From contig JASXTE010000011.1 in NCBI GenBank assembly GCA_030280995.1, positions 22,879,817-22,943,816 of the forward strand: DNA of 64,000 bases, in the 5' to 3' direction. The notes beneath the pieces are model-generated. The model was not told the origin of the DNA. It did no database searches and saw only the letters and a program-made list of their open reading frames with translations. Within the stretch, counting starts at the first letter, position 1. The number at the start of each line of letters is the position of its first letter. The position numbers were made by a program, and so were the translations under genes. The stretch is from Hemileia vastatrix (lineage: Eukaryota > Basidiomycota > Pucciniomycetes > Pucciniales > Zaghouaniaceae). This document shows, in pieces, positions 13,767 to 58,647 of this stretch.

Positions 13767-13774
13767 ATTTTTTT

Positions 13775-14401: not shown

Positions 14402-14567
14402 GAAAAAATTATAAAGGATAAATAAAATTGAAAAAGAAGAAAATAATAAGGGAAATTTATAAAAAAATAAAAAATATAAAAATTAAAATAAAAAAATTAA
14501 TAAAAGAGAAAAAAAAAGAAAAAAAAACTTGGAAGAAAATAGTTAATGATAGAAAAAATATAATATT

Positions 14568-24497: not shown

Positions 24498-24600
24498 AGG
24501 GGGTGTCAGTTCTAGCAAATCCGCACTCAAATTTTGCAAAAATGTTATTTATTTCAAAATTGGGTGTCAGTTATAACCTCAAATCAGCACTTTTTTCCCA
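24498..24600. repeat. Left terminal and subterminal repeats of Harb-2
   Basis: The terminus AGGGGGTGTCAG is followed by AAATCCGCACTC and, about 50 bp in, a second terminal-like GGGTGTCAGTTATAACCTCA and AAATCAGCACTT. The same nested layout occurs at the right end of Harb-3 (61660-61811). Repeated AAATCCGCACTT-like motifs are candidate transposase binding sites. Confidence 0.75.
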
Positions 24601-24836
24601 TATATATATTATATATATATATTCACAACCACATGTTGGCCACATCATCCCTTCTTTTCCCACCCTGTCCCTGTCACATGAGACACCCAGACCTCCATCT
24701 ACTCATCAATCCTTGGCACACACTCCTCACTGAGATTTGAAATGTTTTATTGTGACATGTTAACCAGGCATGTTTTTTTCCTTCTTTTCTTATTTTTCCA
24801 ACCTCTTAATCTCTTTTCTTGTAACATACCAGTTTC

Positions 24837-26209
24837 ATGACACCTCCCAGAAAATCCAACACTCAAAAGGCAACACAAGAAAATGCTACATCACAAAGGT
24901 CTTCTGGTAATGCAAGTCCCTGACCTGAGAAATCAAAGTCTGGACAGCTAAAAAAAAAAAAAGGAAGATTATCTCATCATCACCAACTTCCTCAAAATTA
25001 AATCAAATTATGATGCATGTTTTGGATGTGAGAAGTCCACCCAAATCAGATGTCCACCTTCATCAAAGTTCAATGGCTTCTTTTTAATGGCAAATGAAGT
25101 AAAAAAGAAAACAAAAGGGAGAATTAACATCCATCCTAAGCAAATGAAGGAGAGGTTAAAAAGTTATCAATCAAAATACAAAAAGGCTCATTTTGCTTTC
25201 ACTTCCACTGGCTTTGGTATTGATGATGATGATTTGGAGATTGGAATTACTACTGTTTTGGAAAAAGTTCAATGTCATGTGTTCTTTCTATGAGGAAATG
25301 GATAGTCTTTTTGGATCCTGAGTTGTTTTCAACCCTTGGGTTATACATGATACCACTAAGGATATACCCTCTGGTACTCAACCATCAAATAATCCTCCCA
25401 GCACACCTGTACTTCAACATTATCAATCCCCTCCAACTTTTAACCATAGCTCAGCTGAAGATGATCCTGACTATCAAGAAGAACAATTATTTTAGAGTAG
25501 ATCTGAGTCCTCAGAGCCACAAAATTTTAATGTATGTTTACCTTCTCTTTTTTCTTCAATTTTTTTTGCTAAATTGCTCATTCTTTCTTTTCTAGTCTCC
25601 TCCTACCCAAACTCAAATTTCCAAAAAGATTAATGATTCCAGAAATGACAATCCTGCTTTGCAATCTGCTTTAGATGAACTTCCTGAACCCTTTAGCTCA
25701 AACAACAAACTAAAGCATCAGGCCTCCACTTCAATGAACTTGAACCATCTTTTAAAACATGGTAATACTTCAACTACCTCTTTTTTCCTCCCTTGACAAT
25801 TATTTTGAGAAGAAAAAAAAAGATATGAGTAAGATTTGCTCACTATATACCTTCTTCAATAACATATATATATATATATATATATATATTTTGTATTAAA
25901 TTTTCTCAGAAAAATCCTCTATTGCAAAAAATGCCCTTGACTTTGAGGAGATAAAGTTTGATCATATGCTAATGAAAGATCAACAGGCCTTAAATTTGGA
26001 GGATTTTTTTTTTTTTTTTTGCTTTAATCAAATGTTGAAAAAGGCTAATTTTGAGGCAGAGGAGATAGAAAGAGCTCACTTTTGCTTAAAGAAAACAAAA
26101 GATGGTGAATTTCAAAAAGAGAAAAAAATGGCTAGTTGTGAATCGGAAAAACAAGAAAGTTTTTATTTTTTTATTTTTTTTTTTTAAAAAAAAAGAATTC
26201 ATTGCAGAA

Positions 26210-26246
<37 letters not shown>

Positions 26247-26270
26247 CAATTTTATGAGGAAATTAAAAAA
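24837..26270 (+). pseudogene. Harb-2 helper DNA-binding protein, broken
   Basis: The ATG at 24837 gives TPPRKSNTQKATQ, then a TGA at 24921-24923, and the frame continues with KEDYLIITNFLKIKSNYDAC, MANEVKKKTKGRINIHPKQM and TGFGIDDDDLEIG. A frameshift near 25275 ends that frame. A C-terminal coiled-coil exon is recognisable after 25920 (KFDHMLMKDQQALNLE, ERAHFCLKKTKDGEFQKE) but is interrupted by long A and T runs (26005-26020, 26165-26243). The Harb-3 copy (60507-61440) shows the same protein nearly whole. In PIF/Harbinger elements a second Myb/SANT-like protein helps the transposase bind DNA and enter the nucleus; that role is inferred. Confidence 0.75.
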
Positions 26271-26277
26271 TGACATT

Positions 26278-26318
<41 letters not shown>
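26205..26318. repeat. Poly-A and poly-T homopolymer runs
   Basis: An A-run at about 26214-26243 and a T-run at about 26280-26317 lie close together and could pair. They fall within the degraded end of the helper gene. Confidence 0.9.
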
Positions 26319-26554
26319 GTTAATGGTTGGGGAATGAATTTAATAATGACTTTTAATCTTATCAAAAATAGTTATATCATGATATTATGAAACTACCATT
26401 TGTCCTTACTGGACTCTAAAATATTGCACTTTTAGAATTAAAGATGGTAAAATAATACTTACACTTGAGTGAAAATCCTCATCACCAACATAATTTTATC
26501 ATATCACCATGAATTTGCATTTCTAAATAGAGCCAAGTCATTAAAATTCTATAT

Positions 26555-26710
26555 CTGTTTGGAAAATTTGGCAATAACCTCTTTAAAATTTCATTGAGGT
26601 AAGGGGTGGGTATCATCAAATTTTTCCAAGTCATCAATTTTCCATGTCAGATTTGAAAATTTGGCAATACCCTCCCCTGCATTTTATTAAAGCAAGGGGT
26701 GAAATTGACC
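26555..26710. repeat. ~90-bp repeat units of Harb-2
   Basis: Two units carry TTTGGCAATAACCTC/TTTGGCAATACCCTC, then AAATTTCATTGAGGTAAGGG or GCATTTTATTAAAGCAAGGG, then ATCATCAAATTTTTCCAAGTC and ATTTTCCATGTCAGATTTG. They are the same family as 13775-14032 (Harb-1) and, inverted, 60060-60350 (Harb-3). Confidence 0.85.
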
Positions 26711-27831
26711 AAAATTTAATATAATTCCATAAAATAATAAATAAATAAATAAATAAGGTAAGTCAAATTCACTGGTTTTAAAGTCATGACAATTCCTCAA
26801 ACCAAATTGAAGACAAGTCTAGAAGCAAAGTTTGGGACTTTACACCATGAAACAATTTAATGTTATCATGATTACCTTTTATACAACACAAGGTCTTTGG
26901 CTCATTACTTTTGTCAGCCAGGCTACTAAACTTACCCAGTAAATAATTAATTATTTACTAGAGTAGAGATACACCTTTACCTCTCAGTTAATGAATTATA
27001 CTTACTTTATAAATTATTGATACAATTTTGACTAACTAATAGGTGAAGATAAGTAGAGATATAATTCTATTATTTCCTCATATATTTTCTTCTGTGACAG
27101 AATCCTCATGACAGCTGAAGAGAAAACTAAAAAAAAAAATATTAAATCAAATATTTTTATTTTTATTTTTACTTTGACATTTTCAGAAAATTAAAATAAA
27201 TCAAATAAAATGAAAATATACAGTTAAATACATTATATGGGTACATTCTATATAGAACAACTTTAATATTTAAAATTTCTAATTGTGGAATTTCTCTTTC
27301 TTGGATACTCATGTATATAGAGTTTTTGACTCTGTAATTTATCTCCTTTTTCCCCATATAAGGCCTCTCAATCTGGCTGTTTTCATTCATTCCATTCTCA
27401 CTTTACAAATTTATTATATATATACAAAACACATCTATTACTACTGTTATTACCTTAGTATTTACATCTGTGTACTTCTAAGCTTTCAAAGTAATTATAA
27501 TAATAATCTTTTTCCCTTTTCATTGAGTATTAAATTATAAAGATAAAAAAAAATGTACCTCTTTTTAAATCTTGAGTTTTTCCCACCTTTCATTGCCGTT
27601 GGACCGCCATAAAATCTTCTAGACCAAAAGCACCCCTTGACAAATTTAGTTTAGTAAATTGAAATATCAGATTTATTTATTAAAAATTTATGTAAGAATA
27701 AAAAATATTCAATGACTTTACAAATCCCTATACGTTTTTGATCTACCTAAAGTTTTATTAAATTTATTACTTTTACCTTCTTTTTTTTTTTTTTTTTTTT
27801 TTTTTACCTTTTTTATCCTTTAAATTAGCTT
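26711..27831. other. Harb-2 interior without a gene
   Basis: 26760-26900 matches, inverted, 59860-60020 of Harb-3 (shared TTATCATGATTACC and ATACAACACAAGGTC). TGTCAGCCAGGCTA at 26908 resembles the start of the Gypsy-1-type LTR but does not continue. A T-run of about 25 occurs at 27781-27805. I see no coding sequence. Confidence 0.55.
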
Positions 27832-27887
27832 TTAACTTATTTGGAAGGAACAGTAAAAATGAGTAAATTTGTTGTAGAAAATAATAT
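27832..27887 (-). pseudogene. C-terminal piece of the Harb-2 Tet-like dioxygenase
   Basis: The minus strand reads FTHFYCSFQIS then TAA (27832-27834), matching the Harb-1 C-terminus FTHFDCSFQINEV. It was separated from the rest of the gene (40880 upward) by the Gypsy-2 insertion. Confidence 0.75.
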
Positions 27888-28903
27888 AGTACTAGCTATA
27901 GGCTTAGACCAAGGGAGTTGGAGAACAACCAGAGAGAAACTCCCCTGTCCCTTTGAGAAATACCAGGTGAGATTTATTTGCTACAGAAAATTAGAGACTG
28001 TTACAATACCCCTTCCAACACACTTCTTGACTGCTTAACAAGTCAAGAAAGTAGCCTAGATAGACCATAGACCAAAGAAAACTTGAAATGCAGAAAGATC
28101 CACACCAGAAAACCAAAACACTGTCCACTTGTTGCACAGAAAACAGCAATAATACTTGATGCAGGTTGCAAAGCTACACCAGAGAAACCAGTTGCCAAAG
28201 TAGAGTTAAATGAAGAACTCACTTTCCAAACAACATAGCCAATTGTGGCCAAAAAATAGTGAAAATAGAGTTATAAATAATGATATAATTACCAGATGGT
28301 TGTATGATAATCAAGGTTGCCTCAAACTGTCTTATTCTGTATGTACACACAGACCCCAATCTAAAAATCTATGCTTCAGCAACAAATTTTCCACGTCTTC
28401 CAGCCAAATTGCATTTAAACCCCTCTAGAAGTGCTCCCCAGCATGCTACAACTGAGGTGGGTGGGCCCCCTGAAGCCAGAAAACCACTAAAATCCACTAA
28501 AAAACCAGAAAACAACAGAAAACACCTTAAACCTTAAAATATGATAAAAAATCATCAAGAAATAAAACATAAGGAAAAAAACAGGGCTATCTAATGGTAC
28601 TAAGAACTTAACTCTGAGACTTAAGATTAGCCAAAAAAATTCAAAAAAAAAATTAAACAGTTATAGTAAAAATGAAAAGTGACCAAAAGAGCTCTCAAAA
28701 CTTAGAATATAAAAAAATCATCAAAACATAAAATATAGAGACAAAACAGGGATATCCAATGCTAATATCCTCATCTCTGTAGCTCCAATATTCATCCTGA
28801 GAATCCAGAAAAACACCATAAACAGAAGTCAATACCATTTAAGACATTACCAAACTGTACCAAACTACACAACAAAGGCCCCAGCCAATGTTGGATGATC
28901 ACA
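27888..28903 (-). repeat. Gypsy-2 3' LTR
   Basis: On the minus strand it starts TGTGATCATCCAACATTGGC at 28903 and ends CTATAGCTAGTACT at 27888. It is matched along its length by 39883-40877, with substitutions and short indels. The first bases abut a purine tract. Confidence 0.88.
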
Positions 28904-28913
28904 TCCTCCTTCA
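28904..28913 (-). other. Polypurine tract of Gypsy-2
   Basis: The minus strand reads TGAAGGAGGA immediately before the TGTGATC start of the 3' LTR. Confidence 0.75.
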
Positions 28914-28987
28914 AATCAAGTATTTCCACATTCTTCCTTCTAAAACAACTACCATGTTCAAACACTTTTTCAAAATCAACCCCTGAG

Positions 28988-29311
28988 ATGGGTCCCTGTC
29001 AATACTGTATTGACCTTAACCTTATCTGTACCACAACACCACCAGCTCATCCATACAGAACCATTTGTGATGCCTGCTATTCAAGAAAGAAATCTTGCTA
29101 CATACCTGGTCCCTCTTCTTCTTCATCAAATTCATCCACACCTCAACCTGGTCCATCTTCCAACAGAACCAAAAGATCTAGGCCTTCCATCCTGATACCC
29201 AGATTAATCAATAAAATACACCCTTCCAAAAAGAGGTCCAACACAGTTAAAAAAACTAGTTCCACCATACCTAGTCCTTCTGATGGTAAAACAAATATTT
29301 CTTCATACTGA
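28988..29311 (+). CDS. Antisense accessory ORF a of Gypsy-2, zinc-binding Cys6-like domain
   Basis: The open frame starts at ATG 28988 and ends TGA 29309-29311 (107 codons), opposite in direction to gag-pol. Its N-terminus is CQYCIDLNLIC, then CDACYSRKKSC 14 residues on: CX2CX6C...CX2CX5C, the spacing of fungal Zn2Cys6-like modules, with the basic SRKK before the last Cys. A Ser/Pro-rich basic tail follows (KRSRPSILIPR, KKRSNTVKKT). I do not know a named family. The paired occurrence with ORF b suggests a real accessory gene rather than chance. A regulatory or DNA/RNA-binding role is inferred only. Confidence 0.5.
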   Translation: MGPCQYCIDLNLICTTTPPAHPYRTICDACYSRKKSCYIPGPSSSSSNSSTPQPGPSSNRTKRSRPSILIPRLINKIHPSKKRSNTVKKTSSTIPSPSDGKTNISSY

Positions 29312-29639
29312 ATTTGGAACTAATGACTTTCCAGCTCATCCCCATACAGACAGTGATGATGACAATGTAAGAACCATTAAAACACCACCACCCAATCAAT
29401 TGCCCATTATAAAGGACTAATTCCAACAACATTCTTCTCAACACAAACATCTCATTCTAAACTACTTCCAATCTACTCCTGCCAAAGATCCACAGGAAAT
29501 TTAGAAAAGAAGACACCTCATCCATCAGTTCAAGACTAATTCTGAACACTTTGTTTCATCTCTTGATTCTCTTCTGTAATTTTATTCTTGACTTAGAAAT
29601 AAAAAAATTTGACCACTTCCCAGACTTCCTGAATGTAGC

Positions 29640-29990
29640 CAACATAAAAAATACCTCAGTTTAAAGTCTTGGGGGACTCAAAACCCTCAGTTTATAGTCT
29701 TGGGGGATTCAAAAACCTAAATCAAAAATACAGAACCAGAGATCAAACCATTAAAGACTCAAAGAAACAAACTAACATTCTGGAGTAACTGTTCTACAGA
29801 GCAGCCAGCTCATCAGTTACCCCCACACTTGCCTTAACTAAATTTAGAGACTCCCCCTTTAGATGACCTATGCCCAATTATCACACCAAACTTCCAGTTT
29901 ATAGTCCTGAAGGACTCACCCATCACCAATCCTCAGTTTATAGTCTTGGGGGACTCATCTTCCTCAGTTTAAAGTCTTGGGTGACTGATT
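29640..29990. repeat. Dispersed ~27-bp repeats in Gypsy-2
   Basis: The phrase CCTCAGTTTATAGTCTTGGG followed by GGACTCA occurs at about 29658, 29688, 29898, 29932 and 29963 with small changes. Related AGTCATAGAGGACTAAAAA phrases occur at 32540 and 32805. They lie in the non-coding part between the antisense ORFs. Confidence 0.75.
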
Positions 29991-30145
29991 CATTTTTGAA
30001 TATGAATTTACACCTGCTCTCATACATACACTCCCACATCCAACTTGTTGAACTTCAAAATCCCTTCATCTTCTATCCATCACTGAAAAAGAAAAATATT
30101 TTTCTTCTTATCTCTTTCTTCTTTTTTCTTGTTCCACCACAGATC

Positions 30146-30322
30146 ATGTTAAACATTGGATCCCCTGATTTTGACCAAAAAACTCTTCTTTGCTTCACTT
30201 CTTCCAAGGACTATGCTTTTAAAAAGTGCATCCACATGTGCAGACCCTGCACTTTCACTCTACCAACTCCAGATGCCAAACTATACAACAGGTCTTGTGA
30301 CTCTTGTAACTCCAAAAAGTAA
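30146..30322 (+). pseudogene. Antisense accessory ORF b of Gypsy-2, second Cys-rich domain
   Basis: The ATG at 30146 follows an acceptor-like TTCCACCACAG. The frame carries CIHMCRPCTF, then CDSCNSKK, a TAA at 30320-30322 and RCDRD in the same frame. With read-through this gives CX3CX2C...CX2CX5C, a variant of the domain in ORF a, so the two are probably duplicates. Reading continues with Ser/Pro-rich sequence and further stops to about 30420. It may be the 5' part of the gene that ends at 31458. Confidence 0.5.
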
Positions 30323-30660
30323 AGATGTGATAGAGATACCAAATAAATTCTACCCCCACCTTCAACTTCCCACAAATACATTTCCAGATCCCCTACTAGA
30401 TCCCCGGAACTAGGTCCAGCCTCTTCTTCTTTATCTTCATCTCCTTCCAGAAACTCCAGGCAATAAGTCCCCAGACCACACTCTAAAAGGGCAGATTTAC
30501 CTTCCCAAATATCTGCTTTTACCTCTGAAAATTCAGCTCCTAGGCTTCTAGACTGCATCCAGGCAGGCCACCAACCTCACTAGGAAGCAAAAATTAGGCT
30601 CAAAACATCCAAATTCAGCCAGAAAACAGCAAAAATCATCCAACAAACAACAACACTTCT

Positions 30661-31458
30661 ATGCAAAAACCTCATAGTGCTCCCAGAGCAATTCAAAAAA
30701 GAATTTCAAAGTCCAATAATGCTAAAACTTTCCAAACTTCTAGAAGACCTTCCAGGGCTCCCCAAGGAAGAATCAGAACTCCCAAAACTGCTCCGAACCC
30801 TAAAATACCTTCTCCATCCAGAAGAAGAAACTACACCTCTCCTCTGCCTGCCAAATATTGTTCTGAAAGTTCACTTTCTTCCAGAAATTCATCCAGAAGA
30901 CAACAGTCAGTCCCTAGATTACCTTCACCTGCCCCATCATACAACAACTTTGGTTCTTCAGCACCAGCAACCAATCCAACTGAGCAGGATATCAATAACA
31001 ACAACAACAGCAACAAAAAACATCCTTCTCCAGCTAGGCCCCAGGAACAGTTTCATCCCAGTTCACCTTCTCAGCACCCAATGGAAGAAGATCAAGAAAT
31101 CCCATATTTATCTCTGGCTGATCCTCCAACCACACACCTTTCCATTCCTTTAGAAGTCCAAATCCTTACGGCTTACAATTTCGACAAACTTCCCATCTGT
31201 AAGTACCATAATATTTCATCCAATTTCATCAAAAAAATAACTTCTGAGCAAAATTCTTCTTGTTTAGATGGCAACCCTCTTCCTGAAACTACTATTGGAG
31301 TTGGCCAACCTCTTGAAAATTCTTTATCACTGGATTATGAGGATACAAAGAAAAACCTAAGCCTCATGTGTTCAAACATGCTAATGGCTTTTGATCTTCA
31401 TGGATCATTGAATGAGTTTGAAAAAACCCTGATAAAGAAGCTTCTGGATGACCACTAG
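30661..31458 (+). CDS. Antisense accessory ORF c of Gypsy-2, Ser/Arg/Pro-rich protein with helical C-terminus
   Basis: This uninterrupted 265-codon frame runs opposite to gag-pol. The N-terminal 150 residues are rich in Ser, Arg and Pro (KTFQTSRRPSRAPQGR, SSRNSSRRQQS) and include an Asn run. The C-terminal 110 residues have mixed composition (EVQILTAYNFDKLPICKYHN, SLMCSNMLMAFDLHG) ending in a helix-like FEKTLIKKLLDDH. No domain is recognised. Together with ORF b upstream it may form one gene: Cys-rich module, basic linker, helical end. A frame this long in degenerate surroundings suggests recent selection, but it could be chance in C-rich sequence. Confidence 0.5.
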   Translation: MQKPHSAPRAIQKRISKSNNAKTFQTSRRPSRAPQGRIRTPKTAPNPKIPSPSRRRNYTSPLPAKYCSESSLSSRNSSRRQQSVPRLPSPAPSYNNFGSSAPATNPTEQDINNNNNSNKKHPSPARPQEQFHPSSPSQHPMEEDQEIPYLSLADPPTTHLSIPLEVQILTAYNFDKLPICKYHNISSNFIKKITSEQNSSCLDGNPLPETTIGVGQPLENSLSLDYEDTKKNLSLMCSNMLMAFDLHGSLNEFEKTLIKKLLDDH

Positions 31459-31751
31459 AAGATGTCAAGAATAATCAAGCACACCTTCCAAAATTCTATT
31501 CCAGCCACTTCTTCTTCCTCCCACAAAATACCTTCCAAACTGGTTCCAGAGCATTACAACCCATACAATCTTTCCAGAAGAATGCACTTTAAAGAACACA
31601 GTGCATCCACCAACCCCAACAAAAAACAAAAATGTCAACACAATCCAAACCAACCTCCAGAAACTTCTTCTTCCAGACATTAAACTATTGAACACTGAAA
31701 ATAAAATTAATAAATAAATAAAGAAAACAAATAATAATTAGCAATTCAAAA

Positions 31752-31845
<94 letters not shown>
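31752..31845. repeat. (ATT)n microsatellite
   Basis: About 31 uninterrupted ATT units in the non-coding part of Gypsy-2. Confidence 0.95.
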
Positions 31846-31846
<1 letters not shown>

Positions 31847-31983
31847 TTTTTTTTACTACTACCTACAACTACTAACATACTAAAAAAAATTTGAAAAGAA
31901 ATAAACCATAATTCACAAAAAAAATATGAGAGCTGAGAAAATAAAATGAATAATAATAAAATAAAATAAATAATAAATACAAA

Positions 31984-32275
31984 TGGTATCTCCCAGCCAA
32001 TTGATGAGCTGATCCCCTGATACCTTACCCACATCCAAGTGCACCTTGATGTGGATACACCTTTAAATAATTTTTGAATAATTTTAAACTGAAATAAAAT
32101 ATAAAAAAAAATACTGAAAATGAAAAATAAAAAATAAATAAAATAAACTGATAAATAATAATAATAATAATGAAAAAGAAAAAGAAAAATAGAACTTCCT
32201 GGCCAATTGATGAGCCATTAACTACCAATGCTTGCCCAAATCCAGGTGACCCTGATGTGGTGACACCATGTAATT
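31984..32275. repeat. Tandem ~205-bp duplication in Gypsy-2
   Basis: CAGCCAATTGATGAGC... at 31994 and GGCCAATTGATGAGC... at 32202 begin similar 80-bp blocks, each ending in CTTGATGTGG/CCTGATGTGG and ACACC. AT-rich spacers differ. Non-coding. Confidence 0.65.
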
Positions 32276-32439
32276 TTTATTTTTGTAATTTTCCACCTTT
32301 TTATCTAATAAACTACCCTAAAAAATTAAAAGAAAAAAAGAAAAAAAGAAAAAAATCTAAAACAACATCCATAAACACATAACATAAAATAAAAAATAAG
32401 AAAAATACAAGTTCAGGTACATTCAAAAGAAAAGATCAC

Positions 32440-33000
32440 TGGTTGGGCTCCCTCCAATAAGTAATAATGATGGGAGACCACCAGGGATCCACCACCATTC
32501 CAAAGAAACTAAAGATTAAGGAACCAGTCTATGCCAGCTAAAAGTCATAGAGGACTAAAAACCTGAATGAGAAAACACAGAACTAGAATTTAACTAGGAC
32601 AAACAAAAGACTTGAAACAGACATTCTTGGGTGACTTCTCTACAGAGCATCCAGCTCATCAGTTACCCCCACACTTACCAAAATCAAATCTAGATGCCCC
32701 CCCTGGGTACCTTCTAACAAAAACCAACATCAAACACAATAAACCAAAAAAACTAATAATAATGAAGAGTCCAGAACTTGAAGACCAAAGATAAACCCAG
32801 TTTAAAGTCATAGAGGACTAAAAAAACTGTGAAAAGAAACCAATACTAGGGTTCAACCAAATTAAGAAAAGAGGTTGGAAACAGAAAATCTGGGGTAACT
32901 GTTGATAGAGCAGCCAGCCCATCAGTTACCCACACACTTTCCAATATCAAATTTAGAGCCCCACCCATGGGTACCTCTAACAAAAGGTTTCAAACACAAA
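32440..33000. repeat. Repeated non-coding modules of Gypsy-2
   Basis: A module of CAGCTCATCAGTTACCCCCA with CACACTT and GGGTACC occurs at about 32650-32710 and 32910-32970, and a related one at 29800-29860. Each is preceded by a GACTTCTCTACAGAG or similar block. The modules are spaced about 270 bp apart here. Structure or packaging roles are possible but not shown. Confidence 0.65.
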
Positions 33001-33059
33001 AGCTGCTCTGCAGCAACCAAAACCCAAATTTAAAAGAATGGTCCTTACTTTATTATCAT

Positions 33060-34230
33060 TGCAGAGTCAGTCTTCTTCATATCTTGTGCCTCTAGGATAA
33101 AACCTCTTCACTTGATCTGCAGCCACTCATTTATTTAAGACTGCACTATCCAACTCTTCCAAAAAATAAAAACCTCCAGATACCTGGGGTCTGATTCTGT
33201 AGGGTCCATTCCATCTGTCAGCAAACATTTTTCCTCACTTACTCTCCAAACTTCTATTGTAAACCAACACCAAACAGCCAGTCTTTAAAGGATTCCTGAG
33301 TCTATGAGCCAACCTCTTGTCTCAGTATCTGACTGCTTGATTTCTAATCTTCATCATTCTAGAGTATGCCTTCTCCTGACATTTTTCTTTACATTCCAAC
33401 TGTTGCATCCTAGCACAGAGCAAATCTTCTGTTGAGTGCACCTCATCCCAATCAATTACAAGATAAGAAACAGCTTCCAAATCCACTGGTAAAACTGCCT
33501 TCTTGAAAAAAATTAACTCATAAGGAGAATAGCCAGTTTTCCTTTTCATAGTGACCCTATCAGCAAACAACATCAAAGGTAAATAATGCCTCCACTTTTC
33601 AGCACTATCTCCACACATTTTCACCAAAGCATTCTTGATAACTTGATGGCCTCTTTCAAGGATGCCTTCAGCTTCAGGATAATAAGGCATAGCCTCTCTA
33701 GCTTTAGAACCAATGCTAGCCACAGCATCTTTGAATTCAGCTCCAAATTCTGGCCCACCATCAACAGTCACTAACTTCATTAACCCATATCTATAAACCC
33801 ATTCCTTTCTCAAAAACTCTGCCACATTTATAGCAGTCATATCAACCAGAGACACAGACTCAACCCAACCAGACAAATCATCCCTGGAAAAAATTAAATA
33901 TTTATACCTGCCCTCTTTAATATGGACAGCATCCAGACTGACTCTTCCAAACACAGTTGATTCACCAGTAGCATGACCAATTTCCTTTGGTTTCAGGTGA
34001 CTTATTCTTTGACACTCTTCACAAGATTGGACCCAACCATTCACAGCCAACTTCATACCAGGCCACCAAAATCTGTCTGCTACTCTTCTGTAAGTCTCCC
34101 CAAAGCCTCAATGACCAAGGCTTTCATTCAAAAACTTCAACACCACCTATTGACCCTTTTTCTGAGTCACCACCACCTGAAGATTTGGATGCCTCCTCAT
34201 AATCAACCTTCTCCCTGACACATAAAAGCC
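33060..34230 (-). pseudogene. Gypsy-2 integrase, broken upstream but with a complete catalytic core
   Basis: The zinc-binding part (FLNESLGH, RVADRFWWPGMK, WVQSCEECQ) lies at 34000-34150 and is interrupted by a TGA after LGH. The core is open from 34056 to 33322: VSLDAVHI (first Asp), TVDGGPEF (second Asp) and YYPEAEGILERGHQVIKNAL (the Glu), followed by GYSPYELIFFKKAV. All three catalytic residues are present. The C-terminal part after 33322 is in broken frames. This is the Ty3/gypsy integrase type with the RDDLSGWVE block common in basidiomycete elements. Confidence 0.88.
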
Positions 34231-34419
34231 AGGACTCTTCTTCTTGATTACTAACCAAGTATCATTATCACAACAATCTGGCCTCTCCAAGGTTGACAGA
34301 TATTACACAATAAAAAAATAAAACCCAGACTGACCCCAGGTCTCATCTTCAAAATTCAACAAAATAACATCCAAGGGCACAACCCTGTCATCAAAATCAC
34401 CAGTATACACATGGGCCAA

Positions 34420-36300: not shown

Positions 36301-36489
36301 AACAACTTTCAACCTTTCCACAGTCACTCTAGAATTTTCAACAAAACCAGGAGGATTCTTCACCAGCTAATTACAGTACAAATCTCTTGACAACAGAGGT
36401 CTCTTCAAAGGAGGATTCAAACCCACAGGCATAGGCTCATTGACAGGCTTAATCTTCTGAGCTACCTTCTTATATTTTGCTGCTCTACC

Positions 36490-37130
36490 TTCAACTTGAG
36501 GAATCTTCAGGAATCCTTCTTTACTAAACCTGAACAAAAACCAAGGGTTTCCCCATTGCTCACATGTGTGGCCAAGGTAATATTTTTAAAAGGTTTAGAA
36601 GAAACCCTAGCAGTGCACAATTGGGAGGACTTACTTTTAGACCCCAATCTCACCACTCCAAAGCATTTCCTCACATCCACATCATCATCTTCACTCAAAT
36701 CCTCCAAATCTTCAAATCTTTATTCATCCACAGAATCACATCTTCTAAACTTGTGCAGTTTAACCTCATTCTGGAAGCTTAAACCATCTTCAGAATCAAG
36801 CACACTAAAATTGTGCAGTTTAACCTCATGCTGGAGACACAGACATTGATCTTGCTTATCTTCACAAAAATTGTTTTTATTTTCTTTCTTCATTATCTTC
36901 AGATTTTTTTTGTTGATTATCCTTAATTATCTTGAAATTTTTTTCTTCTTTTCTTGAGTTTTCTTCTGACCTACAAAAATAACCAGGGGTTTCCCAAATG
37001 CTCACAGGTGTAGCAAAGGTAATGTTTTTGAAAGGTGTAGAAGAAACCCTAGTGGTGAAAAATTGGGAGGACTTACTTTTAGACCTCAATCTCACCACTC
37101 CAAAGCTTTTCCTCATATCTTTCAATAAAG
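36490..37130 (-). repeat. Duplicated linker segment between protease and RT in Gypsy-2
   Basis: The minus-strand blocks at 36507-36700 and 36960-37130 both encode FGVVRLxSKSKSSQ and RVSSxPFKNIT. At the DNA level ACTTACTTTTAGACC and CACCACTCCAAAGC recur about 440 bp apart. The segment belongs to the pol polyprotein linker; both halves carry stops. Confidence 0.6.
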
Positions 37131-37432
37131 ATATGTAACCAATCTTCTTTCTTGAACTTGAATATAAATAATTGAGAATATTGAGAGAGAAAAGAGACTT
37201 GATAAAAGACTTGAAGCATACTTTCAGAGAAGAGAAACATTAAAAAGAGAAAGTTAAAGATCCACTTGGTATATCTCCAAGGGAGCTGAGCTACTACAAC
37301 CTGGGATTTCCTCATCTTGGGGAGAGGTTGTAGCACTAGGGTGATCAGCCCTCATTACTCTAAAAAAGACAGGCTCCTACTAGAGCCTGAGCCACACTCC
37401 AAAAAACCAGAGGCAGAACCCACTTCTCTTAT

Positions 37433-38134
37433 TTACCTGCAACAGTCCATACACTGGCACATTGATGATAAGCCAGGCCTTGTCTCCCAACCATCCTCTC
37501 CTGGGGATGATAACCTCATGTGAATCCTTCTTTCATCTTCACCAGTAAACTCCAAATAAATTCCCACATAATAATAATAACCAATTCTTGCTAGAAAATC
37601 CATCAAGAATGGCCCACCCAAAACTGCTTTCACTTCTCCCTTGGCAATGTAAAAATGAACCTTTCCTGAGGCTCCACCAAAATCTAATTTAAAAAATTCA
37701 GATGTTCTCACAAATTTTGTGACATGGCCACCAATCCCTCTTAAATTTCCACCAATACCAGTCTTGATGGGGAGGCCAAAATGAGTCGCCTCATACAAAG
37801 AAATCAGGTTAATCTGAGAACCTGAATCCACCAATGAATTAGCCTCCCTACCATTCAGGGTGATGTTGACATAACCCAGAGGAGCAGCAAAATGAGTTTC
37901 CAACCCCTCATCAAATATTTCAGCAGAATCACAAATTTATTCCACTTCCCCAGAAGAAACCCTTCTCCTGGTCAAAAAACTCTTTTGTCTATCAGCCAAC
38001 CCAGGACTGATAGCATACAACTCCCCATAAGTAAGGGAAACCTGACTCTGGTTCATTCTATCCAACACAGAGTCCATAAAAGTTAATTGACCAGAAACGA
38101 CTGGCCTCTCAAAGTGAGCCCTTGGCTTCACCAT
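37433..38134 (-). pseudogene. Gypsy-2 aspartic protease region
   Basis: The open frame of 156 codons (37903-37433) contains NSLVDSGSQINLIS, the DSG active site of retropepsins, and AVLGGPFLMDF, the usual downstream hydrophobic-Gly block. The active site is intact. Upstream, in the same frame, RAHFERPVVSGQLTFMDSVL (38134-37937) is separated by a stop. The protease acts on the Gag-Pol polyprotein. Isolated by stops, it cannot be made as part of a polyprotein here. Confidence 0.82.
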
Positions 38135-38506
38135 CTTGGTCCTAGAAAGTTATTGAGGACCAGAACCACCAAAAGATTTTCCTTCAACAGGAATCAAACC
38201 ATATCCCTCACCAGACCCTTTAACTCCAGCAGAATTTGGAAATGAAGCCAAAGGGACATCCTCCTCAGTGTCAGGATCAACCTCCATAGGCATTGGCTCA
38301 CCATTCATGTCCAACGCTCCAGAATTAGGGGGGCCCATATCAGACATACCCTTCTGCATTTTATACAGCTCCTATTTTCTGGAATTTTTCCTAGCTGCAC
38401 AAATCTAAGGATCCACCTTTTAACCCTTAGGCTTTGGTTGGACCTGAGAACTTCTCTTAGGCCTTCCCACCTTTCCTACTTCCACATCATACACACCAGC
38501 CAAGAA

Positions 38507-39760
38507 TTACCCACTTGGCTGTCCACCACAAGAATACAACTCCAAACCACCAAATGAAGATATGAATGAGACTCTATTAGCCTCCTTACCTTTTCCATTG
38601 CCATAATCTCTACCTTTACCAGAAGAGAAAGCCTCATCAGGAAACTCTTCAAACCTTGGCCTCCTTGAGTTGACATTATGTCTCCTCCTCACCAAGTCTA
38701 CTGGAGCCTGACCATGACTAGGCTTAACAAAAGAACCATCAGAGAACTTGAAAATTTTCACATCAAAATCCACATTCCCTTCAGAAAAATCTCTATTCAG
38801 TTCCCAAAAATTATTGGACTTGTGTCCCTTCCTACTACAGTAAGAGCAGACCCAAGGATCACTTCTACTAGCCCTCCTTTCAAAATACCTAGGCTGAGAA
38901 GGAGCCTTATTGGCCTTCTGATCCTCCTGAACAAAAATATGTAGCTTTTTTGTCAGATCATCCAACCACACCACTACTAGATCAACTTATTTAGGCTTCT
39001 CAGGAGCCTTCCCCTTCTTCATACTCTCCTTCTTCCTCCTTGAATCCTCTACATCTTCATAAAAGGCTTCACTGACCTTGCTAACATACTTGGTGCTAGC
39101 TTCTTGGCAAGAATCCAGTGCCAATAGTTTGAGGTGGTCCTCCACAAACTCCTTCACCACCAAATGAGAAGGCAAATTCTGTTTCCCACTAGGAAGAACC
39201 TTCATTTTGTCCTTCCTTGCCAACTCCTTCAACACATCAATTCTGACCTCTCTTGTCAGAGCAGACCAGAAAATATCCCTTTCAGAATCAGTACTTTCCA
39301 TCTCCTGCATATCCACAAAGTAATCCACCACTGGCTCTAACTGAGCTGCAAACTTCCTATAGGAGTGAAGATTATTCACCCCACCATAAGATTGCCATTC
39401 ACTTGTAATCATATTGAGATCCACCATAGAGTATCTAGATCCCCACCTGTCTGTAATCTGCAGACACAACTTTTTTGAATTCTTTCTCCTATAACCCTCT
39501 ATAGCAGCAACCTCCTTCACCAGAGCACTTTCAACAATGTAGAAAATGACTTGCTTCACCATGTCCAAGTGGGAAGCACCATCCACATTCCCAGAAGCTT
39601 CAAGTGGCTCCAGAAACAACTTCACATTTTCACCCATAAACATGGGCTCCTTCCAGAATTTGATCCTGAAAGAGGGCCTAAAAGAAACAGGAGGATTAAA
39701 ATCCTCAGCAGCACTAGCAGTTCCACTACCACAACTATAGAAAGAGGGTCCTGAAGCCAT
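38507..39760 (-). pseudogene. Gypsy-2 gag, one in-frame stop
   Basis: MASGPSFYSCGSG begins at about 39760. The capsid region has FRIKFWKEPMFMGENVKLFL, DRWGSRYSMVDLN and SALTREVRIDVLKELARKDK, followed by a lysine-rich stretch. A single TAA at 38987-38989 separates it from the nucleocapsid part in the same frame (TKKLHIFVQEDQKANK). The zinc knuckle CSYCSRKGHKSNNF has Phe where the last Cys of CX2CX4HX4C should be. An acidic/Met-rich region follows to 38150. Gag would form the virus-like particle. Confidence 0.85.
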
Positions 39761-39844
39761 GGTACAATAGATTCCAGAAACCCTATTTCCTACCAAAGAA
39801 GAGAGACCAACAGTAACAGAAAATCCAAGAAGCTAAAACATCCT

Positions 39845-39870
39845 CACCCCAAATTGGGCACCAGAAATTT
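39845..39870 (-). other. Probable primer binding site of Gypsy-2
   Basis: Just inside the 5' LTR the minus strand reads TTTCTGGTGCCCAATTTGGG. TGG-starting sequence with GGTGCC is typical of tRNA primer sites and their vicinity. The exact tRNA is not determined. Confidence 0.4.
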
Positions 39871-39882
39871 AGACAATCCTAA

Positions 39883-40877
39883 AGTACTAGCTATAGGCCT
39901 TGACCAAGGAAGTTGGAGAAAACCCAGTGAGAAAGTCCCCTGTCCCTTTGAGAAATTCCAGGTGAGATTTATTTGCTACAGCAAATTAGAGACTGTTACA
40001 ATGCCCCTTCTAACACACTTCTTTACTGCTTAATAAGTCAAGACAGTAGCCTAGATAGACCACAGACCAAAGAAAACCTGAAATGCAGAAAGATCCATAC
40101 CAGAAAACCAAAAAACTGTGCACTTGTTGCACAGAAAACAGCAATGATACTTGATGCAGGTTGCAAAGCTACACCAGAGAAACCAGTTTCCAAAGTAGAG
40201 TTAAATGAAGAACTCACCTTGCAACAAACACAGCCAATTGTGGCCAAAAAACAGTGAAAACAGAGTCAGAAACAGTGATCTAATTACCAGATTGTTGTAT
40301 GATAACTAAAGTTACCCCAAACTGTCTTATTCAGTATGTACACACAGACCCACATCTAAAAATCTATGCTACAGCAACTAATATGGCACTTCATCCAGAA
40401 AAATTGCATAAAAAACCCTCTAGAAGCACTCCCCAGCATGCTACAACCAAGGCAGATGGTCCGCCTGAATCCAGAAAACCACTAAAAGCAACTAAAAAAT
40501 CAGAAAACAAAAGAAAACACCTTAAACCTTAAAATATGCTAAAAAATCATCAAGAAATAAAATGTAGTGAAAACCAGGGCTATCTAATGGTACTAAGCAC
40601 TTAGCCCAAAAAACACAAAAAATAAAATTAAACAGTTATAGTAAAAATGAAAAGTGACCAAAAGCTCCCTTAAAACTTAGAATATAAAAAAATCATCAAA
40701 AAATAAAATGTAGAGGAAACCAGGGCTATCCAATGATAATAGCCTCATCCCCATAGCTCCAATATTATGCCTGTTAATCCAGAAAAACACCATAAACAGA
40801 AATCAATGCCATTTAAGACATCACCAAACTGTACCAAACTACACAAAAAAGGCCCCAGCCAATGTTGGATGACCACA
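39883..40877 (-). repeat. Gypsy-2 5' LTR
   Basis: Direct repeat partner of 27888-28903, starting TGTGGTCATCCAACATTGGC on the minus strand at 40877. The two LTRs differ by many substitutions and short indels, so the insertion is not very recent. Confidence 0.88.
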
Positions 40878-42060
40878 TTGTGAAAAGATTTCAAACCTGG
40901 AGGAGCTTTTGTTGTTTGGTGATTATTTTAAGAAGAGTTCCAAACTGATTCAATGATTCCATTCACTAATCCAAAATTTATTATACACCTATTATCTGGG
41001 AAATATAAGCCATGTCCTTTGATTTTAGCAGGAGAAGGAATAGGTTGTCTAGTATAAGGATTGATATAAGAGAAGATCCCAAAAGTAAGATAATTTGCAT
41101 CATTTGAATTGGTATGAATTAAGTTATGAAATCTGGAAGGAGTAATTATAACATTCAAAAATAATAGATTTTCATTTCTGATTTCTTGCCATTCTGATTC
41201 AATCCAATTTGGTATTCCTATTCTAGTATAAAGTTCATTATTTACTTCAAAAGATTTCTTGTGGAGTTTTAGAAGCCAAAGAGCAATAAAAGACTTTAAT
41301 GAAGCTAAGGTGTTCCATTTTCAAAAATTGTTATCTTTTTCAGCTTTAGATAAATATTTGAGTAAACAATAGATGCCTATAAAATTAAAATGAGTAATTT
41401 TTATAATCATTAAAGATAATTAATACACTTACCAAGAGAATAACCTTGAACAAATCCTGGTTTCCATCCAAAACCAATCATGATTCAACCCATCAAATTC
41501 TTATTCCTTATTGGTAAGCAAACTGAAGCCATTTGATATAGTATCATAATGAGATTGGATAGTTGAATAAAGAATTCATCTTTTACTCCATCAAATGAAT
41601 GGTTTTTTTCAATAAGTTGAGGTTTAAAATTATTACTGATTACAGCCTTAGCTTCATCCCCTCCTAATTTGGTTAGATATTTGATATTTTCTGGTAAATT
41701 CTTGAAATATTTATTTTTCTTATCAACTTTAGTTTTACAATACTTGATGTTTGATATGTGGCCAAATAAAATATATAAGTGTATTTTTTTCTTTAATATC
41801 TTTTTTTTGATAATATCAATCATCATTTTTTGAAGGTTTTGAAGAAGATTGAAATGAAGTAGAAATTGAAGAAGATGATAAAGAATATAAATATGAAGAT
41901 AGAAGTGTAAGGCTTGAATCAGAAGAAACAGATTTTTATTCCTGAAATTTCTTTTGACAATTGAAATGAAGTAGATTTTGAAGAAGAAGATAAAGAAGAT
42001 AAAGATGAATATAGAAATGTAAGGCTTGAATCAGAAGAAATAGACTTTTTTTTTATTCTG
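40878..42060 (-). pseudogene. Tet-like 2OG-Fe(II) dioxygenase pseudogene carried by Harb-2 (main part)
   Basis: This is the same gene as in Harb-1, with the same single intron position (GTAAGT..TTATAG, about 41433-41377). Blocks: NLPENIKYLTKLGGDEAKAV, SNNFKPQLI, QLSNLIMILYQMASV, MIGFGWKPGFVQGYSLG, NVIITPSRFHNLIHTNSNDA, LTFGIFSYINPYT, GHGLYFPDNRCIINFG, then a TAA and NNHQTTKAPPGLKSF. The iron-binding HxD reads HTN, so the metal-binding aspartate is Asn. The gene is broken by stops and by the Gypsy-2 insertion after 40878; its C-terminus resumes at 27887. The homology to Harb-1 across two elements shows that it is standard cargo, not a random insertion. Confidence 0.72.
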
Positions 42061-42289
42061 AAAAAATATTTACTGGTTAAAAAAATGTCAAAAAAAAATT
42101 TTTTTTCTTAAAAAATAAACAAAAACTCACATAATTTAAATTAAAAGACCTTAAATATTTTCTGCAAATAATTAATAAGAATAATTATTACTTTACTTGA
42201 ATTTGAGGAGTTTTTTTTTGTTAATTCTGCACAAAAAAAAATGTTAAAAGAAGTTGTAAAACTTTTCTGTCAATTTTTTCATTAATCCC
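42061..42289. other. AT-rich spacer in Harb-2
   Basis: Low-complexity A/T-rich sequence between the dioxygenase gene and the palindrome; matches the position of 15960-16505 in Harb-1. No gene seen. Confidence 0.5.
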
Positions 42290-42745
42290 TTTTTGATCCC
42301 CTTTCCCCCGTTGTAAAACTTTTAAAAAGCCCATTCCAAACTGTATCTAAACCCCAATTAAATCTCTCAAAACCTCTCTAAAACCCCCTCAAACCCCCCT
42401 ATAACCCCCTGGAATCCTCCCCCCCCTCCTCAAACCCCTCCAAACCCCCTAAAACCCCCCCTCAATCCCACCCTAGACCTGCTTCAACCTCCCCCCTAAA
42501 TACTCATATAATCTTTTTTTAATGAACAATTAGCTGGGGTTTTAAGATGGGGAATAGGGGGGGGGAGATTGAAGCGGGTTGTAGGGGGTTTTAAGGGGGT
42601 TATAGAGGGGACCAGAGGGGGAGTTTGAAGTATGTGTAGGGGGGTTTGAGGGAGTTGTAAGGGGAGGAACGGGAGGTTTAGAGGCAGATAAGGAGGTAAA
42701 AAATGTGGGGAAAGGTGGGATAATGACCAGGATGAGGAGGGATAA
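42290..42745. repeat. C-rich/G-rich palindrome in Harb-2
   Basis: The C-rich arm (42300-42500; units such as AAACCCCCCTATAACCCCC) and the G-rich arm (42545-42745; units such as GGGGGTTATAGAGGGG) are imperfect complements around an AT spacer. It occupies the same place between dioxygenase and transposase as the palindrome in Harb-1. The 86-codon Pro-rich antisense frame here is a by-product. Confidence 0.8.
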
Positions 42746-43139
42746 CAAGGGGATTATGGAGATAAAAAAATAAGAAAAGAGGGAGAGCAAGAGAAAGAAC
42801 AAAAAAAATAGTAAACTTAACCTTGAAAACCAGAAAAAGAACCACTTACAAAAAAAAGATTACAGAAAAAAAAATTATAATTAACAATCAAAAAATAAAT
42901 AAAAAATGAATAAAATAACTTACCTGGAGAGATGAGATGAGAAAATAAATTAAACCACTTTTTTTGAGGGATTTTTGAGGAGAAGAGGAAAGAAGGTGAA
43001 AAAAAACAAAAGATACAGGGAGAAAGAGACTTTCACTGAAAATTCAAAATAAAAGTCAATATGAAAAAATAAAATTAATAAATCAAGAGAATAATACATG
43101 CAACTTGATTGTTTGAAGAGTATTAAAAAAATTAAAAGG
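42746..43139 (-). other. Spacer downstream of the Harb-2 transposase
   Basis: A-rich sequence; the minus-strand donor-like CCAG|GTAAGT at about 42921 is followed by sequence matching 17360-17430 in Harb-1 (TGAGATGAGAAAATAAA, TGAGGGATTTTTGAGGAGA). It suggests a conserved transcribed, spliced leader for the dioxygenase gene. No coding frame. Confidence 0.5.
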
Positions 43140-44732
43140 GTTTTGTTGAGCAAAGTTGGAGTATTATTGGCATAATTATGGAGCCTATCCCGGTTGGAAA
43201 TATGATTAATAGTAGATAAAAATGAAATGAATTTTGTAATAATTCAAGAAAAAGTTGCTTAATATCCCAATTTTCCAGTGTGATTGTAAGAATTTTCACC
43301 TGTATGCTAGTAGTTTGAGAAAATGAAGTTTTAGATATAGTGGGAGGTGTTTCAACGTTTTCATCTTCATACAACTCTAACCATTTATCTTTGAGATCAG
43401 CAAAGAGGTTATGAAGTATATTGCAGCACAGAATTCATTTAATCATTGCCTCCATTTTGGATTTATTTCTAATAAGACTTCTTAATTCCCTTAAGCTAGA
43501 AAAATGACTTTTCAAGACTCCAGTCACCCCTAAAAATCAAGTGGCACCTGCTAGCAGGTGCATATCCCTATAGTCAGCTTTGATTTAAGAGTAAATTTGA
43601 TTTGATGTTGTGCAAGCTAGTGTGCTCATTTTTCAGTGTACAGTCTTTTCCAGAAGAATTACAGCTGAGCTGAAATTCAGTTAAGTCAAAGATAGGGATT
43701 GGCACCTGCTATTAGGTGCCCATGTTTTTTTTCTGGTGAGTAGAAAATTCAATATGGACTCTTGGATTTTCCAAATGATTGTTGAACTTGGCATTTTGAC
43801 TGTATTCAGATGCCTCTCCACAAAAATCAGAAAGTTCATATTTTCTATTCACATAAGCAGAGTCTTCCAGAAGATACAGATCTTCATTGAAGAATTTTTC
43901 AGGTTCTTTTTGTAATTTGCATTCTTTGAAAGATGTAGGAGTCATGAAATGAACCAGGATATCCAGCAAAGAAAGATATAAAATTTTTTCACATCACATA
44001 TAAGCTGACCATAAATTGAATATCTATAGAGAAGATATAGTTGCTTGTTTTAGTATGAAAAAGAAAGAATTGAATTAAAAATAAGCTAACTCTTTTTACA
44101 ATCATAGTAATTGTTTCCACCTTGAGCAGGTTTCTTACTTAAAGGAATAGTAGTATCATCAACAACACCAATGCATCCTGGGACTCCCTCTTCTTGCATA
44201 AACTGAGATGATTCAAGTATCTCTTCTTTAATTGGCCAGGTAAGAAGTTTACATTCCAAGGATTTGATAGCAGTGATGCATTGTTTTGTATAAGTGTCAA
44301 CAGAGCCATACCCTAAATAAAAGACATTTTCCAAACATTTCAAGGCAGCTGCGTTAACATTGGAAGGCAAATGACATAGTGTGATGGCCAATTGAATTGA
44401 AGGATTATGTTGTGGTTTTTGAGAATTATTGTGAAATACAGGGTGGTCCTGAATAAGCTCAAGAAATTTAAGGAAACATTCCTGAGAAGTCCTGAATGAC
44501 TGTCTAAAAAATGGGTACAGATAGGTTAAGAAGGGTTTGGATGGTTCACTTGGGGGGAGGAAGTAATTGAGGCTTTCTAAGAAGAATGTAGTGTTTTATG
44601 GCAATTTTGGATAAAAAATAAAATCTTCTTTAAGATCAGAATCAGAATTGCAATCAGAGTCCAAGAGGAGATCAAGAGCTATGAAAGTTATTGCTTGATG
44701 TAGCTTATAACAATTTAAGAGTGAGGAAGGCA
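43140..44732 (-). pseudogene. Harb-2 PIF/Harbinger transposase, broken
   Basis: It starts at ATG 44730-44732 (PSSLLNCYKLHQAITFIALD). Blocks, across frameshifts: HPIFHNNSQKPQHNPSIQL, VNAAALKCLENVFYLGYGSV, GCIGVVDDTTIPLSKKPAQG (first Asp), LYLLEDSAYVNRKYE (second Asp), NPRVHIEFSTHQ (the Glu), then a 180-bp MITE insertion, LKSHFSSLRELRS and CNILHNLFADLKDKW. All three DDE residues can be seen, but frameshifts near 44560 and 44085, stops and the MITE destroy the gene. It is closely related to the N-terminal fragment in Harb-3. Confidence 0.87.
43542..43722. mobile_element. ~180-bp MITE with palindromic ends inside the transposase
   Basis: The left end contains GCACCTGCTAGCAGGTGC, a perfect 18-bp palindrome; the right end contains GCACCTGCTATTAGGTGC, a near palindrome. 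Beyond these, ATCCCTATAGTCAGCTTTGA pairs with TTAAGTCAAAGATAGGGAT as longer inverted repeats. The element interrupts the transposase just after the catalytic Glu block. Confidence 0.75.
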
Positions 44733-45022
44733 TGACTCTTATATAGTATAAAAATGTAAATGATATACAATGTTTATAGTTATAAAGTGTTATGCTGTGG
44801 AGTGCTGTGTATGAGTGGGATGATGCTGACAAATCATTGAAGTGGGACGTTATGGTGAAATCTGCACTTTTGGTTGAGAAAGTGCAGATTTGAGTGAATT
44901 AAGTGATTTATTTCATTTTGAAATCTACCAGTGTTGGGGCTAGTATATTTCAGAAATACGCACTTAAATAAGTGCAGATTTGGTCAAATTTAAGTATGGA
45001 TTTTGCAGAACTGACACCCCCT
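44733..45022. repeat. Right terminal and subterminal region of Harb-2
   Basis: It matches, inverted, 58340-58647 of Harb-3. It holds AAGTGCAGATTT-type motifs at 44880, 44960 and 44970 (counterparts of AAATCCGCACTT) and ends GAACTGACACCCCCT. It presumably also contains the transposase promoter. Confidence 0.8.
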
Positions 45023-58520: not shown

Positions 58521-58647
58521 CCATCAAGTCCCATTTCACTGATTTGTCAGCATCATCCCATTCATACGCAGCACTCCGCAGAATAACACTTCATAACTCA
58601 AAACATCGTACATCACTTACATCTTCATATCATATCATATAAGAGTT

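What the first reader, a model, noticed from the sequence alone, without database searches (positions are those of the whole stretch)
24498..45022. Harbinger-type transposon with a Tet-like dioxygenase as standard cargo
Two independent elements (Harb-1 and Harb-2, with different terminal sequences) carry the same extra gene, in the same place and orientation downstream of a PIF/Harbinger transposase, with the same intron position. The blocks HLDKHD, GHGLYFPDHKCIIDFGG and HWHQTT fit a 2OG-Fe(II) dioxygenase of the Tet-like type expanded in rust fungi. TET/JBP cargo is known for KDZ transposons in basidiomycetes; linkage to an IS5/Harbinger transposase plus helper protein would be a separate transposon-dioxygenase system, possibly demethylating or marking its own DNA to escape silencing.
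Basis: partly seen in the sequence, partly recalled or inferred. Interest (0 to 1): 0.88.

Follow-up and report, generated by a model that had tools for sequence, protein, structure and literature searches.

The report
Harbinger transposons carrying Tet-like dioxygenase genes
Two jumping genes in this rust-fungus DNA carry an extra gene resembling enzymes that erase DNA methylation, a combination described in 2025 for related rusts; here the extra gene appears optional and has changed hands between transposons.

Summary
Both elements encode a Harbinger transposase followed, on the same strand, by a dioxygenase matching Pfam PF20515 above its cut-off. Harb-1 lies between TA-flanked inverted ends, 24499-45021, but is decayed, with an LTR retrotransposon inside the dioxygenase gene. 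Harb-2 lacks its helper-side end; 10303-13002 is a separate deletion derivative. The host is inferred to be Hemileia vastatrix (largest scaffold identical in length).

The arrangement is not new: Kojima 2025 (PMC12730594) describes it as TET+ "PHISTA" in Puccinia and Austropuccinia, without Hemileia.

New here: young TET+ copies with open dioxygenase frames; purifying selection on the dioxygenase (dN/dS 0.07-0.12 between families); optional cargo (of nine loci picked by transposase, four carry it, two lack it, two lack it by inference, one undecided); and two very different dioxygenase types in elements with similar transposases, hence exchange. CpG depletion shows no lasting protection of TET+ copies. 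Demethylation itself is inferred, not shown.

The parts
24499..45021 (.). Harb-1: decayed TET+ Harbinger (PHISTA-type) element with both ends, GGGGGTGTCAG, TA on both sides
   Evidence: inverted arms 24494-24554 / 44966-45026
24952..26187 (+). Harb-1 third (helper-like) gene, broken; likeness to Myb/SANT-like PF13837 far below cut-off in this copy (11.9 bits)
26533..26701 (.). remnant of the ~93-bp repeat array between helper and dioxygenase genes
   Evidence: self-match, and match to 13811-14048 and 60067-60363
27760..27874 (-). 3' end of the Harb-1 dioxygenase gene, cut off by the LTR element
   Evidence: tblastn of the Harb-2 piece 14571-14840 onto 27885-27760, 38% over 42 residues, E 0.001
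27875..40878 (-). nested Ty3-type LTR retrotransposon (protease, RNase H, integrase pieces); LTRs 87.5% identical
40886..41691 (-). Harb-1 Tet-like dioxygenase gene, main part (PF20515 58.2 bits over 40931-41320); Fe-ligand motif reads HxN, not HxD; intron 41377-41432
43132..44688 (-). Harb-1 Harbinger transposase gene, broken
13744..20123 (.). Harb-2: left-truncated TET+ element, transposase-side end GGGGGTATCAA at 20113-20123
14571..15521 (-). Harb-2 Tet-like dioxygenase gene, broken (PF20515 33.2 bits on 14571-14840; HxD kept); intron 15185-15238
17844..18932 (-). Harb-2 transposase, open frame of 363 aa, PF13359 73 bits
10303..13002 (.). separate deletion derivative of the Harb-2 family: transposase-side end at 10303, helper-side end at 13002; the transposase, third-protein and dioxygenase pieces I used gave no match in it
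58341..61810 (.). TET-less deletion derivative of the Harb-1 family, opposite orientation, part of transposase and third gene kept, TA on both sides

Best explanation
These are TET-carrying Harbinger transposons of the PHISTA kind in a rust fungus, by all signs the coffee leaf rust Hemileia vastatrix. Shown: transposase, Tet-like dioxygenase and a third protein gene inside TA-flanked inverted ends in better-kept copies elsewhere in the genome; purifying selection on the dioxygenase; recent near-identical TET+ copies; absence of the gene from other copies; two different dioxygenase types within one transposase family, i.e. exchange of the gene. Inferred: the enzyme oxidises methylated cytosine on transposon DNA and so loosens silencing, for TET-less relatives in the same nucleus too (acting in trans), which would explain why TET-less copies with the same ends also multiply.
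For: PF20515 hits in the window and in open frames of other copies, 99-117 bits (L039, L040, L052, L054); 150 of 150 scored matches over the cut-off out of 10,849 candidates in the genome, 0 of 14 control genomes. L039 (40-7505) and L040 (1098-7582): both ends, TA flanks, and the three genes in the Harb-1 order; dioxygenase frames open in both, transposase open in L040 in two frames, with a stop in L039. dN/dS of the dioxygenase 0.07-0.12 between L039/L040/L042 and L052/L059, 0.16-0.23 against the Harb-2 type L054. Ten of 29 TET+ loci compared (L017, L024-L028, L030-L033) have a nearest copy 98.8-99.4% identical. Trans action, indirectly: TET-less copies nearly identical to TET+ ones (L051 vs L052 transposase dS 0.014; L062-L064, judged TET-less, vs L039 98.8-99.3% in the third gene). 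Literature: Kojima 2025 (abstract, passages, sections 3.4 and first part of 4).
Against: No enzyme assay, expression or methylation data. The Fe(II)-ligand Asp of HxD is Asn in 15 of 45 distinct copies, among them young open ones (L030-L033), so part of the spreading copies may be inactive. CpG depletion is no weaker in TET+ than in TET-less copies. Only 16 of 150 scored GTGTCAG-family transposase copies, and 2 of 111 GTATCAA-family ones besides Harb-2, have a scored dioxygenase in place; both counts are far too low, since four sampled GTATCAA loci carry a dioxygenase that the capped lists miss, but they do not favour a fixed cargo.
Confidence: 0.65

Rival explanations
1. Passive passenger: the dioxygenase gives the transposon no advantage and is carried along and lost at random.
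For: TET-less copies with the same ends exist and are young (L051, L057, L058, L061 are 99% alike); part of the young TET+ copies lost the Fe-ligand Asp; dN/dS between the two very close copies L039 and L040 is 0.77, on very few changes.
Against: dN/dS of 0.07-0.12 between families whose transposases are saturated at silent sites; the gene changed hands between elements and was kept.
Confidence: 0.15
2. Marking rather than erasing: the enzyme makes a stable modified base (5hmC, 5fC or a 5gmC-like base) that changes recognition by host or transposase, without demethylation.
For: Kojima 2025 states that another activity on cytosine or thymine cannot be excluded for PU-type enzymes (section 3.4) and cites oxidised methylcytosine around Kyakuja elements in Coprinopsis (Discussion).
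Against: No data for PU-type enzymes; nothing in the sequence separates this from demethylation.
Confidence: 0.2
3. The gene is a host gene caught by chance between two transposon ends.
For: Only one element with both ends and the gene lies in the window.
Against: L039 and L040 on other contigs have the same ends and gene order; 26 of 40 scored copies of the block 3' of the gene have a scored dioxygenase at one fixed distance.
Confidence: 0.02

Closest known systems
TET+ Harbinger / PHISTA elements of Puccinia and Austropuccinia psidii (Kojima 2025, PMC12730594)
   Same: DDE Harbinger transposase, TET/JBP-type dioxygenase, a third protein, TA target duplications, TET- relatives alongside
   Different: Host genus Hemileia (inferred; 0 mentions in that paper's main text); third protein here shows weak, sub-threshold Myb/SANT-like similarity; exchange between two PHISTA families, minisatellite edges and HxN variants are not described in the parts I read (the words minisatellite and tandem repeat do not occur)
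KDZ transposons with TET/JBP (Kyakuja, Dileera, Zisupton; Iyer et al. 2014, known to me through Kojima 2025 and recall)
   Same: fungal DNA transposons with a TET/JBP gene
   Different: different transposase group and longer target duplications (8 bp for Zisupton)
Nuwa lineage of PHIS transposons (through Kojima 2025)
   Same: Harbinger transposase plus a second protein gene
   Different: 3-bp target duplications and a Myb/SANT DNA-binding protein

Membership tests
PHISTA (TET+ Harbinger) | Harbinger-type DDE transposase | tested here: met
   PF13359 73 bits (17844-18932), 91.8 bits in L051; the broken Harb-1 pieces stay below the cut-off and rest on tblastn
PHISTA (TET+ Harbinger) | TA dinucleotide target duplication | tested here: met
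   TA directly outside both ends of Harb-1, 10303-13002, 58341-61810, L039, L040, L051, L052; not testable for left-truncated Harb-2
PHISTA (TET+ Harbinger) | PU-type TET/JBP dioxygenase inside the ends | tested here: met
   PF20515 in Harb-1, L039, L040, L052; the PU/AG/PE type itself was not tested against published sequences
PHISTA (TET+ Harbinger) | third protein without Myb/SANT domain | tested here: inconclusive
   third protein present; of five scanned, four (58341-61810 copy, L039, L040, L051) hit PF13837 at 17-20 bits and the Harb-1 piece at 11.9, cut-off 27
PHISTA (TET+ Harbinger) | transposase falls in the PHISTA clade | not tested
TET/JBP dioxygenase, active | HxD...H facial triad | tested here: inconclusive
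   HxD in 30 of 45 distinct copies, HxN in 15 of 45, Harb-1 among the latter; the downstream His is read by eye as HQTT in pieces listed
TET/JBP dioxygenase, active | oxidation of methylcytosine in DNA | not testable with these tools
   needs an assay or methylation data

The most novel reading that the evidence does not exclude
The Tet-like gene is a swappable cassette bounded by minisatellite arrays: a C-rich array on the transposase side and a ~93-bp repeat array on the helper side. TET+ elements serve, in trans, a crowd of TET-less siblings with the same ends, and a sublineage that has lost the Fe-ligand Asp still spreads as a structural or decoy version of the enzyme.
Probability: 0.25. 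Interest if true: 0.65.

Novelty: new member of a known kind. Interest (0 to 1): 0.42.

Why it matters
If these enzymes really undo or rewrite methyl marks, rust genomes would host a long arms race in which transposons carry their own eraser. This genome, inferred to be Hemileia vastatrix, adds a rust genus that the published survey does not mention, with at least 150 scored dioxygenase matches, young TET+ and TET-less siblings side by side, and public HiFi reads. That makes the open question, does the cargo change methylation in cis or in trans, directly testable by comparing siblings.

Tried and rejected
Rejected: Harb-2 as a 10303-20123 element. Its supposed left end is a transposase-side end (92% to L051), and 13002 is a helper-side end of the same short element. 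Rejected: 3-bp TWA duplications of canonical Harbinger (recalled, and Kojima 2025); all ends fit TA. Led nowhere: two AlphaFold models from alignments of 2 and 3 sequences (mean pLDDT 39.8 and 35.2), so no fold search was made; phmmer of the Harb-1 dioxygenase piece against PDB, no match at E up to 10; transposase scan of viral contigs, 3 pattern matches, no relative. Literature terms PF20515 / 2OG-FeII_Oxy_6 / Tet-like 2OG-Fe: no paper. The protein database was switched off, so relatives in other rusts could not be compared. Silent-site divergence as a clock for the cargo exchange was set aside: it is near saturation for both dioxygenase types.
Full report
What is in the window. Ends GGGGGTGTCAG face each other at 24499 and 45021, both directly flanked by TA. 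Between them lie, on the minus strand from the right, a broken Harbinger transposase gene, then a Tet-like dioxygenase gene, and from the left on the plus strand a broken third gene. The dioxygenase gene is interrupted by a 13-kb Ty3-type LTR element whose LTRs are 87.5% identical. PF20515 matches 40931-41320 at 58.2 bits and, in the second element, 14571-14840 at 33.2 bits; 14844-14996 stays below the cut-off and 41488-42030 has no match. The second element's transposase is a 363-residue open frame matching PF13359 at 73 bits; the Harb-1 transposase pieces do not reach that cut-off and rest on tblastn. The dioxygenase cores of the two elements are 47% identical over 128 residues, with a GT...AG intron at the same place.

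Borders of Harb-2. With a complete relative, L051, as yardstick, 20123-19796 and 10303-10619 are both transposase-side ends (92%), and 13002-12764 is a helper-side end (92%). So 10303-13002 is a deletion derivative of its own, and Harb-2 (about 13744-20123) has lost its helper side. A third family member, 58341-61810, is a TET-less deletion derivative of the Harb-1 family.

Host. The held genome has 747,610,610 bases in 791 contigs. Its contig C26 is 71,415,227 bases long, exactly the largest scaffold of the Hemileia vastatrix Race I assembly (747.98 Mb, 794 scaffolds, GC 33.78%; PMC10652848, part 1 of 2 of the text read).

Genome-wide. All 150 scored PF20515 matches exceed the cut-off, out of 10,849 candidates, most of which were not scored. 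L039 and L040 are GTGTCAG elements of 7.5 and 6.5 kb with both ends, TA flanks and all three genes; the dioxygenase is open over 406 and 389 residues, in frames that read through the presumed intron. The transposase of L040 is open in two frames; that of L039 has a stop. Of four 10-kb stretches chosen from dioxygenase hits, two (L039, L040) showed both ends and a transposase, one (L042) one end and no transposase, one (L041) no GTGTCAG end and no transposase match. In the other family L052 has both ends, an open transposase and an open dioxygenase core, though its third gene holds a stop; L051 has both ends, transposase and third gene and no dioxygenase.

How regular is the cargo? Nine GTATCAA-family loci were taken by their transposase alone. 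L052, L055, L056 and L059 carry a dioxygenase. L051 was read whole and lacks it. L058, read from the C-rich array onwards, passes to the third gene without it. L057 and L061 are 99% identical to L051 in the stretch read and leave 2.2 kb unread where the TET+ layout of L052 takes 3.7 kb, so I judge them TET-less by inference. L060 holds the block that follows the dioxygenase in TET+ copies but the place of the gene itself was not read: undecided. L053 and L054 were picked because a dioxygenase hit lay nearby and are not counted. In capped lists, 16 of 150 scored GTGTCAG-family transposase copies have a scored dioxygenase 1.5-7 kb downstream, and 2 of 111 GTATCAA-family copies (all rows; one search had used only 16 rows). 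These are heavy undercounts: L052, L055, L056 and L059 are missed. Three GTGTCAG copies without a listed dioxygenase, from the best seven transposase rows, were sampled (L062-L064): the third gene lies 1.8 kb closer to the transposase than in L040 and 2.7 kb closer than in L039, too close for the gene and the block behind it (inferred from distance, the gap was not read). L064 also shows a 39-residue dioxygenase fragment, but beyond the element's end.

Selection and exchange. dN/dS of the dioxygenase between L039/L040/L042 and L052/L059 is 0.07-0.12, against L054 0.16-0.23; between close copies it is higher (L039-L040 0.77, L039-L042 0.31, L040-L042 0.32, L052-L059 0.29). The transposases of L052 and Harb-2 are 83% identical (dS 0.18), yet the L052 dioxygenase is 80% identical to that of L039/L040 and only 57% to the Harb-2 type of L054. 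Elements with similar transposases thus carry two very different dioxygenases, so one of them was exchanged. In a tree of 45 copies (39 different) the Harb-2 type with the best PF20515 hits (11 rows) and the GTGTCAG copies with the loci not assigned to a family (30 rows) are well-supported groups, with the four dioxygenases of L052, L055, L056 and L059 between them; midpoint rooting puts these four with the Harb-1 type, but the tree is unrooted, its bootstrap had not settled, and the donor and direction cannot be told. About 300 bases of non-coding DNA behind the gene are 82-96% identical between L039 and L052, L056, L059 and L060, more than the coding part, and identity falls to 53-69% at the edge of the ~93-bp repeat array; against L053 and L054 the same stretch is 38-48%. 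Constraint on that stretch is an alternative to recent exchange. L051 and L052 part company at the end of a C-rich array and meet again at the ~93-bp array. I take the arrays as likely edges of the exchange; this is suggestive only. The 40 full-length copies scored of the block behind the gene (1,992 candidates) are listed at 100% identity to L039 (rounded), 26 of 40 with a scored dioxygenase at one fixed distance.

Does the enzyme protect its carrier? CpG observed/expected is 0.07-0.08 in the old Harb-1, 0.17 in Harb-2, 0.03 in the nested LTR element; 0.32-0.36 in L039, L040, L052 and 0.19-0.27 in the stretches L055, L056, L059 (all TET+); 0.34-0.41 in L051, L057, L058, L061 (TET-less) and 0.42 in the TET-less 58341-61810; 0.26 in L060. 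Age confounds this and the sample is small, but there is no sign of lasting protection by the gene. The Fe(II)-ligand pair named in Kojima 2025 section 3.4 reads HxD in 30 and HxN in 15 of 45 distinct copies. Most copies were ranked by likeness to Harb-1, itself HxN, which may inflate that share.

Comparison with what is known. Kojima 2025 (PMC12730594; I saw the abstract, passages of 3.1, section 3.4, the first part of the Discussion and the figure legends) reports fifteen TET+ Harbinger families with TA duplications from five Puccinia species and Austropuccinia psidii, named PHISTA, with a third protein, TET-less relatives, transfer of TET genes between transposon superfamilies, and the idea of escape from silencing. 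The present elements meet the features that I could test, the third protein excepted. They differ in host genus, and four of five third proteins scanned have a weak, sub-threshold likeness to Myb/SANT-like PF13837 (17-20 bits, the fifth 11.9; cut-off 27), where Kojima states there is no Myb/SANT domain. A 2025 paper on rust transposons (PMC12210899, passages only) has no mention of TET, dioxygenase or Hemileia in its main text. My literature searches were made, open-licence papers only; in their listings I saw no report of TET transposons in Hemileia, but subscription papers were not searched.

Verdict. A real finding of moderate interest: an apparently new host for a recently described kind of transposon, with useful evidence that the dioxygenase is selected for, optional and exchangeable. 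The demethylation function remains an inference.

Noticed in passing
L039 3152-3730, L052 3627-4291, window 16541-17156; by eye window 42382-42753: Between transposase and dioxygenase lie C-rich minisatellites and, next to them, G-rich ones; in TET-less L051 only the C-rich array is listed.
   Followed up: partly
window 21779-21976: A 198-bp MITE-like element with ends GGGGGTATCAGAGTT / AGGGGTATCAAAGTT, possibly mobilised by the same transposases.
   Followed up: no
right flanks of 13002, 20123, 21976, 45021, 61810: All five right ends are followed by TATT, which hints at a wider target preference than TA.
   Followed up: no
window 53011-55734 and 51404-52260: Long open frames made of lysine/asparagine-rich and phenylalanine-rich repeats in several frames, i.e. 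short tandem repeat DNA.
   Followed up: no
window 13070-13771, 2230-2936, 47317-48428: An unidentified interspersed repeat; its copy at 13070-13771 abuts the truncated side of Harb-2.
   Followed up: partly
L041: Two third-gene copies in opposite orientation within 10 kb, 71% and 50% identical to the Harb-1 piece, i.e. nested or adjacent elements.
   Followed up: no
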